Source: Pseudomonadota bacterium (GTDB taxonomy: Bacteria; Pseudomonadota; Gammaproteobacteria; Competibacterales; Competibacteraceae). Taken from it: a stretch of DNA of 64,000 bases. The notes below the pieces were generated by a model. The model was not told the DNA's origin, did not search any database, and saw only the letters and a list, made by a program, of their open reading frames with translations. The stretch's first letter is position 1; every line of letters starts with the position of its first letter. Location of the stretch: contig JAKLIY010000001.1 in the NCBI GenBank assembly GCA_022709365.1, positions 62,001 through 126,000 of the forward strand. The letters are read 5' to 3'. The position numbers and the translations under genes were made by a program. Shown here one piece after another: positions 9,702-18,827 of the stretch.

Positions 9702-12700
9702 CTACGCCGTTGGCGCGGCAAGCGGCGGCAAGGCTCGAATGGTTTTGACCGTCTCCACGCTGATTTGCACGATCTGGCCGAGCAACCGGATGATAAATTG
9801 TGGATCGTCGGGGCGGTTCGGATCATTGACAATGCCGCTGCGCGGGTCATTCTTGACTTGATACTGGTCAATGACCCATTCCAAGGCTGAGCGATTGCCG
9901 AGGCGATATGCAAACGCCTCGGGTGGAATGCCGCTCAACGTCAGCCAGTCATTATAAGTAATGGCCGTCTTCTCCTTATCCAACCGCATCCGGCGTACTT
10001 TCCAGTCATGCGGTTGATCGGGAGCGTAAATGCGGATCAACGGATATTCCGGTTGCTGTTGATAGTTGAGGTGCAAATCAGCGAGTTGCTGGCCGGCCCG
10101 GCTATAGGCCCAAAAGTCGGAGGCGTAGGGAATGCGTGGCAGTTCACGCCTCAGGTTGGCGGCGTATTTCTGGCGGTATTCTTCGCTGTGCAACAATCCG
10201 TAAACATAATAGAAAATATCCCATTTTTTGATGCTGGAATCCCGGTAATACCGATTGAATTGCAGCAAGGCCCAACCGGTGATATTTTCCTGACGGTGCT
10301 GGCCGTCTTCGCTATAAATGTAGAAAGGGAAGCACTGTGTAGAGGAACCTGCGCCGACCAGATGCATATCGACCAGACCCCGACTAATCAGCACCATAAA
10401 GGGTTTTTCTGAACCTTTGTCGGTATGACAAATGACCCGGTTTTCCTGCTCCTGATCGCTGGTGGATGCGATCCATGGGAACTGTCCGCGCCGGTGCGTC
10501 AATAGAGTATCAAAATACAAGTACTGCTGCGTAAAGGGCCGATAAAGACAGGAGCGGATATGATTCTGGTCAAATCGGGTTTTCAAACCATTTTCCACCG
10601 ATTGCTTCAAACTACTCGTCCAACTGATCTTGGCGTCTTCATAATCAACCAGATCATCCACTGCAGATTTAGGTTCATCAGCATCAAGCCATTTGGAAAC
10701 CTGGGCATTATAAAAGGCAATTGTGGTTTTCAAGTTGGCCGTGAGTCGATTAGCGTCAAAATTATAGGTCCAAGCGTCTCTGCCAGTTTGTACGCCAATG
10801 CTGAATTTCTTGAAAATCACATTTTTAGCAAGCTGTTTTCCTGCCTTCTGTTCCTTATCACCTAAAGCTATCTGATTTTGAAAGTCGGCTTGCAAACCTT
10901 CTGTTAGCCAAATATTTTTTCTATTTGGTATGATTTCCTGCCATTGAATGGCTGAATAATTATTACAGCTTTTCAAAAACTCATATTTCTGTTCTCTACG
11001 CCAAAATTGATCAGTACTGGCATAGTAAATTCGACTAGGCCCGGCTGTCTCCAATTTTACCAGAAATGTAATGCAAACCCCTACTTTGATTCCAAAGACA
11101 TTGTGCGTCGTTCCAGAAAGTGTAGGGTTCTTACGCACATTTCCACCCAGATCAAATAAATAAAGACGTGCAAAATTTTCCGCTAGACATTGACGCATTC
11201 CATCAAAAGTAAGCCCATCGAGAAAGCCATTGTTGGTTACAAAGGCAATGATCCCGTGTGGCTGATTCCGCAAACGTTCGGTAGCCCAGGCAAATGCTTT
11301 GACATAGGGATCACTCAGGGCATTTTTATTGGAAGCGGTAGAACGAGCAGCATAGGATTCCGCGACCCATTTTTCCACTTCACCATAGACTCGGTTTTTA
11401 TTGTTGTCGTTTTCATTGGCTTGCCGGGCGTTATAAGGTGGATTGCCAATAATCACGAAGATATCAGAAGCTTTTTGTCGGGTAACGCGAGTAATATTTT
11501 CCGGGATCGAAAATCCGAAACTGTGCTGACGACTTTCAGCCAGTTCAAAGGTATCCACCAGGCAAATACCTTCAAAAGGCTGATATTCGCCCACCATTTC
11601 ATAATAGGTGTGTTCAATATTCATGCTTGCGATATAATAAGGCAATAGCATGATCTCGTTGCAATGCAGTTCTTCTGTATACTTGCGTGTCAGCGCTGTT
11701 GGATCGATCTCCCGCAAAATCCGGGTTATAAAGTTACCCGTACCGACAAAAGGATCGATAATCTGTACACCACTAGCCGATAACGAACAGTTAAATTCCT
11801 GCCGCAACAATTCATTGACCGAATGCACCATGAAATCAACAATCGGTTGTGGGGTATAAACAATGCCATGCGTATCCGCAGCCTTGATGGCAAAACCCTG
11901 GAAAAACTGTTCATAAACGGCATTCAGAAAGCTCTGCTTTTCGGTGTAATCGTCAATAGTTGCCGCAGTGATTTCAATGACGCGGTAAAAATGATCCAGC
12001 TTTTTCAAAAACTCTTCACGGCTGAAAGCGCGGGACGTGAGTGCAGCAATCACCCGTTCGATTTCCCGGGCAATGATATTTTTGTTGATGAAGTCGGGAT
12101 TGTTGAAAACCTTGCGGAAAATTCGCTCGGTCAGTAAATGCTGAATCAGCATTTCTTCGACCGCAGCCAATGCCAGATTAGGATTGATCGATTCCTGACA
12201 GAGCCGGAAAAAGGTTTCAAACGCCGCAGCAAAATGCTTATTACGAGTACGCTCCTGCTGGACGATCGCCAGCAACGCCTGACCCAGTTCCTGAACCTTC
12301 TCCTTGAAGCCGGCGACGGCTTCCTGCCATTGCGGATACGCTGGCGGTTGATAGCCGAAGAACAGTTGCAACCCTTCAATCAATAACTCTGGCGAATGGC
12401 GAATGTCGGCCCGCAAGACTTCCTGCCCGTTTTGCCACAGCACGATCCGCTCGGGCGATTGAAACAGGATGTTGTCCTTGGGATAACCTTCGGCCCATTT
12501 CTTTTGTATCTCTCGGTCCAGATCATCCTGACGATCCTTCGCCTCCCACAACCCCAGACGCAGGGCGAACTGATCCACAATCGCTCCATCAGCGCGCAGT
12601 GGACGGCGCTGATCACGGGCAATGGAATACTGCTCTACCAGCTTCAAATTCGGCAATTGGCCGGCGCAATGCCGCAGCAGCGCGGCAAACGCTGGCGCGA

Positions 12701-12794
12701 CCGCCCCTTCATGCTGCGCATCGGCTTGCGCCATAGCTTCCAACTGCTGGTAATAGGCGCAGATCGCTTTATGATGAGGTTTGAGATTGAGCAT
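9702..12794 (-). CDS. Single-chain restriction-modification protein: PD-(D/E)XK nuclease, adenine N6-methyltransferase, type ISP-like specificity domain
   Basis: A 1030-residue protein. The N-terminus carries a nuclease core with D69/D74 and E84-A85-K86 (LGLWEAKD), matching PD-(D/E)XK enzymes. The methyltransferase domain has motif I DPFVGTGNF near residue 346 for AdoMet binding and motif IV NPPYNA near residue 450, which indicates N6-adenine methylation. The C-terminal third (RIPYASDFWAYSRAG, LADLHLNY) resembles the specificity domain of type ISP enzymes. I see no helicase motor domain between nuclease and methylase, unlike classical type ISP proteins, so a type IIG-like enzyme is likely. 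The central gene (10.5-12 kb) is visibly richer in A and T than its neighbours, suggesting horizontal transfer between gshA and the aminopeptidase gene. Confidence 0.85.
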   Translation of the reverse strand: MLNLKPHHKAICAYYQQLEAMAQADAQHEGAVAPAFAALLRHCAGQLPNLKLVEQYSIARDQRRPLRADGAIVDQFALRLGLWEAKDRQDDLDREIQKKWAEGYPKDNILFQSPERIVLWQNGQEVLRADIRHSPELLIEGLQLFFGYQPPAYPQWQEAVAGFKEKVQELGQALLAIVQQERTRNKHFAAAFETFFRLCQESINPNLALAAVEEMLIQHLLTERIFRKVFNNPDFINKNIIAREIERVIAALTSRAFSREEFLKKLDHFYRVIEITAATIDDYTEKQSFLNAVYEQFFQGFAIKAADTHGIVYTPQPIVDFMVHSVNELLRQEFNCSLSASGVQIIDPFVGTGNFITRILREIDPTALTRKYTEELHCNEIMLLPYYIASMNIEHTYYEMVGEYQPFEGICLVDTFELAESRQHSFGFSIPENITRVTRQKASDIFVIIGNPPYNARQANENDNNKNRVYGEVEKWVAESYAARSTASNKNALSDPYVKAFAWATERLRNQPHGIIAFVTNNGFLDGLTFDGMRQCLAENFARLYLFDLGGNVRKNPTLSGTTHNVFGIKVGVCITFLVKLETAGPSRIYYASTDQFWRREQKYEFLKSCNNYSAIQWQEIIPNRKNIWLTEGLQADFQNQIALGDKEQKAGKQLAKNVIFKKFSIGVQTGRDAWTYNFDANRLTANLKTTIAFYNAQVSKWLDADEPKSAVDDLVDYEDAKISWTSSLKQSVENGLKTRFDQNHIRSCLYRPFTQQYLYFDTLLTHRRGQFPWIASTSDQEQENRVICHTDKGSEKPFMVLISRGLVDMHLVGAGSSTQCFPFYIYSEDGQHRQENITGWALLQFNRYYRDSSIKKWDIFYYVYGLLHSEEYRQKYAANLRRELPRIPYASDFWAYSRAGQQLADLHLNYQQQPEYPLIRIYAPDQPHDWKVRRMRLDKEKTAITYNDWLTLSGIPPEAFAYRLGNRSALEWVIDQYQVKNDPRSGIVNDPNRPDDPQFIIRLLGQIVQISVETVKTIRALPPLAAPTA

Positions 12795-16297: not shown

Positions 16298-16909
16298 CTA
16301 TGACGTCACGCCGAGGACGGCGATTCCTGCGGTTTCCAGCATCCGGGTTAACCGCATTAACGGCAGGCCGATCAGGCTGGTGGGATCGTCGCCCTCCAAC
16401 CGCTCGAACAGCGCAATGCCCAGCCCCTCAGATTTGAAACTGCCCGCACACTGATAGGGCTGTTCCCGTTGCAGGTAGGCTTCGATCATCGGCGCGGTCA
16501 GCGAACGAAAGATGACCCGGAATTCCTCGACCGTTACCTGGCATTGCCCGCTGGTGCTGTCCAGCAAACATAATCCCGTATAAAAAATGACGGTGCGCCC
16601 GGACGCTCGCTGCAACTGTGCAACGGCGTGCGGGTGATCGCCGGGTTTGCCGATGATGTCGTCGTCCAAGACCGCGACTTGATCCGAACCGATGATCAGC
16701 GTGGTTGGAGCCGCTCGGGCGACCGCCCGGGCTTTTTGTTCCGCCAGTCGCGCAACCAGCGCTGGCGCTGCTTCGCCCGGCAGGCGGGTTTCATCGACTG
16801 CGGGAGCCTGGACAGTGAAGGGCAGCCCCAGCCGCGCCAACAATTCGCGGCGAAACGGCGAGGTAGACGCCAGGAGCAGACGGCGGCCATCGGACCCGGT
16901 TTCAAACAT
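16298..16909 (-). CDS. maf: Maf-family nucleotide pyrophosphatase (YceF type)
   Basis: A 203-residue Maf protein. It has the N-terminal LLLASTSPFRRELLARLGLPF, the catalytic VDET motif, EQKARAVA, the IIGSDQV motif with its catalytic Asp, and GSFKSEGLG. Maf proteins hydrolyse non-canonical or modified nucleoside triphosphates; the YceF branch prefers m7GTP. The family signature SDQV, rather than a DTxV motif, supports YceF. A GTG at 16918 would add three residues. It is divergent from yceD, the common gammaproteobacterial arrangement. The roughly 180 bases to the enoyl-CoA hydratase hold nothing I can name. Confidence 0.9.
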   Translation of the reverse strand: MFETGSDGRRLLLASTSPFRRELLARLGLPFTVQAPAVDETRLPGEAAPALVARLAEQKARAVARAAPTTLIIGSDQVAVLDDDIIGKPGDHPHAVAQLQRASGRTVIFYTGLCLLDSTSGQCQVTVEEFRVIFRSLTAPMIEAYLQREQPYQCAGSFKSEGLGIALFERLEGDDPTSLIGLPLMRLTRMLETAGIAVLGVTS

Positions 16910-16967
16910 GAGAACCACTCGATGAATGCAGGGAAAGGACGGTCATTGTGCGGAATCCGGGTTTATT

Positions 16968-16996
16968 TTGACAGAATTCCGGCTTGCCGATATGAT
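16968..16996 (+). promoter_or_regulatory. Sigma-70 promoter of the yceD-rpmF-plsX-fab operon
   Basis: A consensus -35 TTGACA (16968-16973), an ideal 17-base spacer and a -10 TATGAT (16991-16996) precede yceD. This is the best promoter match I found in the window. Transcription would begin near 17003, only a few bases before the chosen yceD start at 17007. The ATG at 16992, which gene finders might choose, lies inside the -10 box. Confidence 0.8.
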
Positions 16997-17006
16997 TCCG
17001 CGCCTT

Positions 17007-17543
17007 ATGCAGACCCCGGCGCTTCCCGAAAAAATTAAACCCTGGCGGATCGCCGCCGAAAACGGCTGCCTCAACGGGAAGCTGGCGCTGGCGACGTTGC
17101 CGCGCCTGACCGCTGCGGTGGATCGCGCTGACGGCATAGTCGCCATCGCGCTGACGGCAGGCATTGATGGGCAAGGAATCCGTTTCATCAAAGGCGTCTT
17201 GCGCGCTGAAGTGGCGCTCACCTGCCAGCGCTGCCTGGGTTTGCTATCATGGCCGCTGGAAGTCGCGGTCAGCCTGGGACTGGCGCGTGACGAAGCGAAC
17301 ATTGCCCGGTTGCCGGATGAGTATGAGCCATTGCTGATTGCCGAAGGCGGCAGCCTGGCTGTGGCTGATTTGGTTGAAGATGAATTATTACTCGCCCTCC
17401 CGCAGATTCCCCGGCATGACGATCTGCGGGAATGCGCGGCCTTGGGTGAAGTCCGGTCCGGCGAACCGGCGCTGGATGCGGAACGCCGCCAGCCCCTTGC
17501 CGCGCTGGCGTCCCTGTTACAGGATTCCAAAAGGAGTCATTGA
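17007..17543 (+). CDS. yceD: YceD/DUF177 family protein, large ribosomal RNA accumulation protein
   Basis: A 178-residue DUF177 protein with the paired-cysteine motif LTCQRCL and the later acidic segment VADLVEDELLLALPQIPRHD, both typical of YceD. YceD is known to affect 23S rRNA accumulation and is almost always encoded directly before rpmF, as here (3 bases apart). I chose the ATG at 17007, not 16992, because 16992 overlaps the -10 box, and because the N-terminus MQTPALPEKI resembles other YceD starts. The transcript would then be nearly leaderless. Confidence 0.85.
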   Translation: MQTPALPEKIKPWRIAAENGCLNGKLALATLPRLTAAVDRADGIVAIALTAGIDGQGIRFIKGVLRAEVALTCQRCLGLLSWPLEVAVSLGLARDEANIARLPDEYEPLLIAEGGSLAVADLVEDELLLALPQIPRHDDLRECAALGEVRSGEPALDAERRQPLAALASLLQDSKRSH

Positions 17544-17546
17544 ATC

Positions 17547-17738
17547 ATGGCTGTACAAAAAAGCCGTAAGAGTCCCTCCAAGCGGGGTATGCGCCGTTCT
17601 CACGACGCCTTGACCGGACCCACGCTCTCGACCGACCGCACCTCCGGCGAATTGCATCGCCGCCATCACGTCACCCCGAATGGCTTCTATCGTGGCCGTA
17701 AGGTGGTCAGTGGGCCAGTGGTTACCGAAGAAGAATAA
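17547..17738 (+). CDS. rpmF: 50S ribosomal protein L32
   Basis: A 63-residue basic protein starting [20 protein letters not shown], the hallmark of bacterial L32, and ending in a short acidic tail. It binds 23S rRNA in the large subunit. A GGAGT ribosome site lies inside the end of yceD. There is no CxxC zinc pair, so this is the zinc-independent form. It is co-transcribed with yceD and plsX. Confidence 0.97.
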
Positions 17739-17798
17739 CGGTGACCGGCCATCGTCTCCTTGTGTGCCATCCCGCTGACCGATCGTACCGGCTCCCGC

Positions 17799-18827
17799 GT
17801 GAATAGACCGTTGACCATCGCCCTCGATGGCATGGGCGGCGATATCGGCCCTGATGTGGTTGTGCCCGCCGCTTTGCGGGTGCTGAAAACCTCGGACGAT
17901 GCGCTGCGGTTGATTCTGGTCGGTCAGGAGGATGTGCTCTCGGCCTGTCTGACCCGACTCAAGGCCAAGGGCCATCCGCAGATTGTCATCCGCCATGCTT
18001 CACAGTTGGTGAGCATGGATGAGTCGCCTGCACAAGCGCTGCGGGTTAAAAAGGACTCCTCGATGCGGGTCGCGATCAACCTGGTTAAACAGGGCGATGC
18101 GGATGCCTGTGTCAGCGCCGGCAACACCGGCGCACTGATGGCGACCTCCCGCTTTGTTCTCAAAACCCTGCCGGGCATCGACCGTCCGGCGATTTGCACC
18201 ACCCTGCCGACGGTGCGCGGTCATGTTCGGGTATTGGACCTGGGTGCCAACGTCGACAGCAAGGCTGAACATCTCTTGCAGTTCGCGGTGATGGGTTCGG
18301 TGCTGGCGGCGGTGAACGGCATTGAGCACCCTCGCGTCGGCCTGCTGAATATCGGCGAAGAAGACATCAAGGGTAACGAACAGGTCAAGGAAGCCGCTCG
18401 CCTGCTGGCGGTCAGCGATCTCAATTACATCGGGTTCGTCGAAGGGGACGGCATCTATCTGGATGATGTGGATGTCGTCGTTTGCGATGGTTTCGTCGGC
18501 AATGTCGCGCTCAAGAGCAGCGAAGGCGTCGCTAAGCTGATCCGTTATTACATGACCCAGGAATTCAAGCGAAACCTGCTGACCCGCCTGGCCGGCCTGG
18601 TCGCCCTGCCGGTGTTGCGCGCCTTCAGCCGCAAAATCGATCCCCGCCGCTACAACGGTGCCAGCCTGCTGGGCCTGCCGGGCATCGTCATCAAGAGCCA
18701 TGGCGGCGCGGATGCGCTGGCGTTCGCCAATGCGATCGAGGTTGCCGTGCTGGAAGCCCAACAAGCCGTACCGCAGCGTATCGATGCCCATCTGTCCGCC
18801 CTTCACGCCGCGAGGCAAGCGCTTTGA
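17799..18827 (+). CDS. plsX: Phosphate acyltransferase PlsX
   Basis: A protein of about 342 residues starting at GTG 17799 ([20 protein letters not shown]), the conserved PlsX N-terminus. Further signatures are [22 protein letters not shown] and [16 protein letters not shown]. PlsX converts acyl-ACP and phosphate to acyl-phosphate, feeding PlsY in phospholipid synthesis. A TTG at 17760 would add 13 unrelated residues. It is the standard neighbour of rpmF and fabH, and its stop overlaps the fabH start by 4 bases. Confidence 0.95.

What the first reader, a model, noticed from the sequence alone, without database searches (positions are those of the whole stretch)
16968..17010. Consensus promoter whose -10 box contains a false start codon; yceD mRNA nearly leaderless
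TTGACA, 17 bases, TATGAT precede yceD. The ATG at 16992 sits inside the -10 box, so transcription would begin after it, leaving ATG 17007 only about four bases from the predicted 5' end. A nearly leaderless message at the head of the rpmF-plsX-fab operon would be notable.
Basis: partly seen in the sequence, partly recalled or inferred. Interest (0 to 1): 0.5.

Follow-up and report, generated by a model that had tools for sequence, protein, structure and literature searches.

The report
Class-wide near-leaderless yceD promoter
The start signal for copying the yceD gene sits so close to the gene that the message very probably begins at, or within a few bases of, its first codon; the same layout, already noted in passing for E. 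coli, turns out to be conserved across much of the Gammaproteobacteria.

Summary
In detail: TTGACA (16968-16973), 17 bases, TATGAT (16991-16996), then 10 bases to ATG 17007. In 36 of 36 testable members of the same family and 102 of 125 sampled class members, E. coli K-12 included, the best sigma70-like promoter ends 7-12 bases before the yceD ATG. In 26 other Pseudomonadota no promoter of that strength does. The ATG inside the -10 box is a false start: it is in frame in only 8 of 137 promoters, and 40 of 137 (all outside the family) have an in-frame stop in or after the -10 box. yceD here has no Shine-Dalgarno site; rpmF beside it has a strong one. The good purine starts are G17002 (5-base leader) and A17007 (none), so the mRNA is probably leaderless or nearly so. 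The G+C-rich discriminator resembles ppGpp-controlled promoters. A 2014 paper already says E. coli yceD lacks a 5' leader and is translated less efficiently (PMC4378010). The basic fact is thus known for E. coli; the class-wide fixed geometry is what I add. No transcript start was measured here.

The parts
16968..16973 (+). -35 hexamer TTGACA
   Evidence: the block ATTTTGACA (16965-16973) averages 1.96 bits per column in 29 aligned family loci
16974..16990 (+). 17-nt spacer
   Evidence: less conserved (1.21 bits)
16991..16996 (+). -10 hexamer TATGAT; TATTAT (12) or TATCAT (11) in most of 35 family loci
16992..16994 (+). ATG inside the -10 box, in frame with 17007: false start codon
   Evidence: an in-box ATG in 15 of 137 promoters, in frame in 8
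16997..17006 (+). G+C-rich discriminator TCCGCGCCTT; no Shine-Dalgarno
17002..17002 (+). candidate transcription start G (6th base after the -10 box, 5-nt leader)
   Evidence: inference; purine at this position in 109 of 137 promoters
17007..17007 (+). candidate transcription start A = A of the start codon (leaderless)
   Evidence: inference; T at -1 in 124 of 137 and only pyrimidines from the 7th base to the ATG in 106 of 137
17007..17543 (+). yceD (PF02620), 178 aa
   Evidence: E 3.7e-15; start supported
17531..17536 (+). Shine-Dalgarno AAGGAG of rpmF
   Evidence: duplex energy -8.2 against +0.3 kcal/mol for yceD
17547..17738 (+). rpmF, ribosomal protein L32 (PF01783)
   Evidence: E 1.1e-21
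17760..18827 (+). plsX (PF02504); ORF bounds as listed, true start possibly further in
16298..16909 (-). divergent maf-like gene (PF02545), ATG at 16909

Best explanation
16968-17006 is the main sigma70 promoter of yceD-rpmF, and it is fused to the yceD start codon. RNA polymerase starts at G17002 or at A17007, so the mRNA carries 5 or 0 nt before AUG 17007 (inferred). With no Shine-Dalgarno, YceD is initiated by the leaderless (5'-terminal AUG, 70S-type) route, while rpmF, 3 nt beyond the yceD stop codon, has a strong Shine-Dalgarno (sequence shown, route inferred). One transcript therefore yields little YceD, a 23S rRNA accumulation factor, and much L32 (reported for E. coli by others, inferred here). 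The G+C-rich discriminator suggests ppGpp/DksA control like ribosomal RNA promoters (inferred). The layout is widespread and probably ancestral in the Gammaproteobacteria (distribution shown, ancestry inferred; no tree was built).
For: Geometry (score 9 or more, -10 ending 7-12 nt before the ATG) in 35 of 35 family, 102 of 125 class and 0 of 26 outside loci, and in a 36th family locus. In the first 99 class loci 86 score 10 or more at that distance, against a mean of 0.1 and a maximum of 1 in 20 rounds of shuffling. In 56 class genomes a strict pattern occurs 64 times (32 for the reversed control), and 25 of the 64 lie at yceD (my matching of coordinates). The -35 block, -10 and discriminator average 1.96, 1.75 and 1.71 bits per column, against 1.21 for the spacer and yceD codons 2-15 and 0.73-1.21 for DNA upstream (29 family loci). 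Shine-Dalgarno at -4.5 kcal/mol or below: yceD 0 of 35 family and 11 of 125 class; rpmF 35 of 35 family and 91 of the 92 class loci, out of 99, where rpmF was found. In-frame stops in or after the -10 box in 40 of 137, between -35 and ATG in 66 of 137. Discriminator (+2 to +6) 91% G+C against 57% in the loci, and 85% against 43% in the 35 loci below 50% G+C. E. coli: TTGACT-17-TAATAT-GCGCGCCCT-ATG. PMC4378010 (section 6): E. coli yceD lacks a 5' leader and is translated less efficiently. PMC7822876 (passages) links G+C-rich discriminators to DksA/ppGpp.
Against: No 5' end, protein N terminus or translation was measured in this organism. The frame is open upstream to 16926 in the window itself, and no family member has a stop in or after the -10 box (0 of 35; 5 of 35 between -35 and ATG). 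23 of 125 class loci do not fit, and in 2 more no start could be chosen. E. coli is reported to have two yceD promoters (PMC13060810, figure legend), so longer transcripts may coexist. Low YceD/high L32 output and ppGpp control are extrapolated from E. coli and from sequence. Which of G17002 or A17007 is used cannot be decided.
Confidence: 0.82

Rival explanations
1. The short distance is an inherited accident: the promoter is conserved because it is strong, and the missing leader has no function of its own.
For: Compact divergent maf-yceD spacing in this window; growth of the E. coli yceD deletion is comparable to wild type (PMC5049393, passages), so poor translation could simply be tolerated.
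Against: The spacing is 9 or 10 nt in 126 of 160 family and class loci although DNA upstream of the promoter varies; Shine-Dalgarno sites are present at 15 of 26 yceD starts outside the class, so a leader is possible for this gene.
Confidence: 0.3
2. The main mRNA starts at a promoter further upstream; the TTGACA/TATGAT lies in its leader and yceD starts at 17007 without a Shine-Dalgarno.
For: E. coli has two reported yceD promoters (PMC13060810, figure legend).
Against: The best alternative in the window, 13-150 nt upstream, scores 3.7 against 14.3; the -35, the -10 and their 17-nt spacing are themselves conserved, as a working promoter requires. In E. coli the upstream RNA sraB is annotated to end at the -35, with 36 nt between it and yceD.
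Confidence: 0.08
3. YceD is translated from an upstream start (ATG 16992, TTG 16968 or ATG 16926) and is longer at its N terminus.
For: The frame is open back to 16926 in the window.
Against: Relatives have in-frame stops (40 of 137 in or after the -10 box, 66 of 137 between -35 and ATG; one more family member, L199, has a stop upstream of the -35); 16992 is not conserved; a frame-shifting one-base deletion lies in the -10 region of L023, L025 and L026; Shine-Dalgarno energies at the upstream starts are weak (-1.7, -3.8 and -2.7 kcal/mol).
Confidence: 0.03

Closest known systems
E. coli yceD-rpmF promoter
   Same: Same gene pair, a -35/-10 pair ending 9 nt before the ATG, G+C-rich discriminator, no Shine-Dalgarno; described as lacking a 5' leader (PMC4378010)
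   Different: -35 TTGACT and -10 TAATAT; 9 instead of 10 nt; sraB RNA annotated up to the -35; no TATGAT in-box ATG in frame
Leaderless mRNAs of enterobacteria (16 fully leaderless plus 17 with 1-6 nt leaders in Salmonella, PMC3293720, passages)
   Same: Predicted 0-5 nt leader and no Shine-Dalgarno would meet that paper's definition
   Different: 5' end not measured here; this one heads an operon and its geometry is conserved across much of the class
rrnB P1-type stringent promoters (PMC7822876, passages)
   Same: G+C-rich discriminator; that paper's scrunched start (nine bases after the -10) and relaxed start (-3) parallel the two candidate starts here
   Different: Near-perfect -35; ppGpp/DksA response not tested; start not mapped; UP element not examined

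Membership tests
sigma70 housekeeping promoter | -35 and -10 hexamers near consensus with 16-18 nt spacing | tested here: met
   11 of 12 letters, spacer 17; conserved in relatives
sigma70 housekeeping promoter | drives transcription in vivo | not testable with these tools
   needs RNA from this organism
leaderless / near-leaderless mRNA | primary 5' end at, or within about 6 nt of, the start codon | tested here: inconclusive
   predicted from promoter geometry only; E. coli yceD reported without leader
leaderless / near-leaderless mRNA | no Shine-Dalgarno upstream of the start | tested here: met
   duplex energy +0.3 kcal/mol at 17007; 0 of 35 family members at -4.5 or below
leaderless / near-leaderless mRNA | AUG start codon | tested here: met
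   ATG 17007; an ATG at the homologous place in 36 of 36 family loci
stringent (ppGpp/DksA) promoter | G+C-rich discriminator | tested here: met
   91% G+C at +2 to +6 over 137 promoters against 57% locus mean
stringent (ppGpp/DksA) promoter | repressed by ppGpp/DksA | not testable with these tools
   needs in vitro transcription or starvation RNA-seq
yceD-rpmF-plsX-fab cluster | gene order and families | tested here: met
   PF02620, PF01783, PF02504, KAS III, short-chain reductase, acyl carrier protein in this order
yceD-rpmF-plsX-fab cluster | one transcript through all genes | not tested
   co-transcription was not examined; [quoted passage not shown]

The most novel reading that the evidence does not exclude
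Leaderless initiation of yceD is itself an ancient, selected control device of Gammaproteobacteria: a 50S/23S rRNA accumulation factor is made by the 5'-AUG route from an rRNA-like stringent promoter, so its output follows the state of the ribosome pool, while its operon partner L32 is made by the canonical route from the same RNA.
Probability: 0.3. Interest if true: 0.72.

Novelty: new member of a known kind. Interest (0 to 1): 0.5.

Why it matters
Leaderless mRNAs are few in enterobacteria (16 fully leaderless in Salmonella, 18 in E. coli, 10 in Klebsiella; passages of PMC3293720 and PMC3415461). A near-leaderless start kept at a nearly fixed promoter-to-AUG distance across much of a class suggests that the missing leader is selected rather than incidental, in a gene tied to large ribosomal subunit formation and lying next to rpmF (L32). 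It offers a natural, testable two-gene system for asking what leaderless starts are for, and it warns that gene annotation may pick false in-frame starts lying in the promoter.

Tried and rejected
Upstream starts (16992, 16968, 16926) were considered and rejected. A possible operator was considered: the inverted repeat GCGGAATC 16950-16957 / GATTCCGC 16994-17001. The upstream arm is partly conserved, but the two arms do not covary in the family (for example L004, L011), so I did not pursue it. RNA structure at the 5' end is unremarkable (z -0.17). In the window's own genome a looser pattern (TTGACA, 15-19, TANNNT, 3-12, ATG) gives 5 hits against 10 for the reversed control, so such spacing alone means little; conservation carries the argument. 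I could not decide between G17002 and A17007: the conserved purine follows the -10 box in most loci but the ATG in L023, L025 and L026. Paper searches for yceD, rpmF or DUF177 with 'leaderless' gave one paper that bears on the point, PMC4378010; some searches were wider. I saw no statement that the layout is conserved beyond E. coli in those listings and in the passages I opened, but most subscription journals and all supplementary tables were out of reach, among them the 1989 mapping paper (seen only as a citation).

Biases and dropped rows: the promoter weights and anti-Shine-Dalgarno string were typed from recall. Start codons were chosen without the promoter score, by distance to the Pfam match or by tblastn anchoring, and ATG was preferred; but four (L041, L045, L052, L054) were picked by eye after the sequences had been printed. 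Starts outside the class (23 ATG, 3 GTG) are less certain. The cut-off of 9 for 'fits' was set after the first listing; without it 107 of 125 class and 2 of 26 outside loci have their best site at 7-12 nt. L001, L032, L033 and L034 were dropped as duplicates. Of 37 family genomes, G001 lacks the 5' end of yceD; G010 was left out at first and added, where it fits, so it is not in the counts. The 116 non-family genomes among the 118 with a match were all fetched; two (L177, L182) had no start in the expected range. The other 11 of the 125 class loci are 3, 7 and E. coli K-12. Of 44 genomes outside the class with a match, I took 26. The shuffle control and the rpmF comparison used only the first 99 class loci.

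Full report
What is there. The window carries TTGACA at 16968-16973, a 17-nt spacer, TATGAT at 16991-16996, TCCGCGCCTT, and ATG 17007. An ATG at 16992 is part of the -10 box and in frame. Against shuffles (0 of 2000) and against all 1821 ATGs of the window (only 17007 reaches 12) the promoter and its position are far beyond chance. In the whole genome a looser pattern is not enriched (5 hits, 10 in the reversed control).

Same family. YceD was found in 55 of 59 genomes (own included). Of 37 family genomes, 36 have the 5' end of yceD on a contig. In all 36 the best promoter ends 9 nt (3 loci) or 10 nt (33 loci) before the ATG. In 29 aligned loci the -35 block, -10 and discriminator average 1.96, 1.75 and 1.71 bits per column, against 1.21 for the spacer, 1.21 for yceD codons 2-15, and 0.73-1.21 for DNA further upstream. 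TATGAT is found in 7 of 35; the rest mostly have TATTAT (12) or TATCAT (11).

Across the class. PF02620 was searched in 149 class genomes (118 with a match) and 60 phylum genomes (58 with a match). Of 125 class loci outside the family, including E. coli K-12, 102 have a best promoter scoring 9 or more that ends 7-12 nt before the ATG, 91 at exactly 9 or 10 nt; 23 do not fit. Of 26 loci outside the class (of 44 with a match), none fits; two have their best but very weak site (0.3 and 2.4) at that distance. For the first 99 class loci, 86 scored 10 or more at 7-12 nt, against a mean of 0.1 and a maximum of 1 over 20 rounds of shuffling. A strict pattern searched in 56 class genomes gave 64 matches, against 32 for the reversed control; 25 of the 64 lie at yceD, so the excess over the control is mostly this one gene (my matching of coordinates).

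Which ATG. In 40 of 137 fitting promoters an in-frame stop lies in or after the -10 box (in the family 0 of 35, in the class 40 of 102), and in 66 of 137 between the -35 and the ATG (5 of 35, 61 of 102). Only 8 of 137 have an in-frame ATG in the box. ATG 16992 is therefore most simply a by-product of the -10 sequence. In the window alone the longer frame cannot be excluded.

How it likely works. From the 7th base after the -10 box to the ATG, 106 of 137 loci have only pyrimidines; 109 of 137 have a purine at the 6th base, and 124 of 137 have T just before the ATG. This leaves two good starts here: G17002 (5-nt leader) and A17007 (no leader). In rrnB P1 the start lies nine bases after the -10, with an alternative at -3 (PMC7822876, passages), a fair parallel. 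A Shine-Dalgarno (-4.5 kcal/mol or below) is present at 0 of 35 family and 11 of 125 class yceD starts, and at 15 of 26 outside the class. In five of the 11 (L061, L096, L103, L121, L149) the promoter fits at 8-9 nt, so the match lies in the -10 region and would not be in the mRNA (inference). rpmF has a Shine-Dalgarno in 35 of 35 family loci and in 91 of the 92 class loci, of 99 examined, where its start was found. So the transcript is most likely leaderless for yceD and canonical for rpmF.

What is known. PMC4378010 (section 6 read) describes the E. coli yceD-rpmF operon as one in which yceD lacks a 5'-noncoding leader and is translated less efficiently. PMC5049393 (passages) reports less 23S rRNA in an E. 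[quoted passage not shown] PMC13060810 (figure legend) lists two promoters, yceDp1 and yceDp2. PMC7967276 (passages) deals with sraB, annotated in E. coli up to the -35 of the yceD promoter. The discriminator (+2 to +6) is 91% G+C against a 57% locus mean, and 85% against 43% in the 35 loci below 50% G+C, which fits ppGpp/DksA control but does not prove it.

Verdict. Observation and interpretation stand; the basic fact is not new for E. coli. The added result is that the promoter-to-AUG geometry is constant in the family and widespread in Gammaproteobacteria, not seen in the other Pseudomonadota sampled, and that yceD accounts for most of the excess of such patterns. Shown: sequence geometry, conservation, absence of a Shine-Dalgarno, exclusion of upstream starts in many relatives. 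Inferred: the 5' end, 70S-type initiation, low YceD/high L32 output in this organism, ppGpp control, ancestry of the layout.

Noticed in passing
window 9702-12794 (-): A 1030-aa protein with Type ISP restriction-modification domains (PF18135, PF22240, N6_Mtase) lies a few kb upstream of the fab cluster.
   Followed up: no
window 16950-16957 and 16994-17001: Perfect 8-nt inverted repeat GCGGAATC / GATTCCGC flanking the -35 and overlapping the -10; the upstream arm is partly conserved in the family but does not covary with the other arm.
   Followed up: partly
window 16946-16963: A block like AATTGTGCGGAATC-GG-TTT upstream of the -35 is conserved in many family members; it may belong to the divergent maf promoter.
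   Followed up: no
L097 (unnamed class genome G170): Exception: TTGACA, 17 bases, TATGAT, but the only ATGs near the expected place lie in or next to the -10 box; a non-ATG start further down (an in-frame ATT) would restore the usual spacing (sequence).
   Followed up: no
L060 790-995 (E. coli K-12): The annotated sraB RNA (790-958) ends at the -35 (957-962) of the near-leaderless yceD promoter, 36 nt before the yceD ATG.
   Followed up: partly
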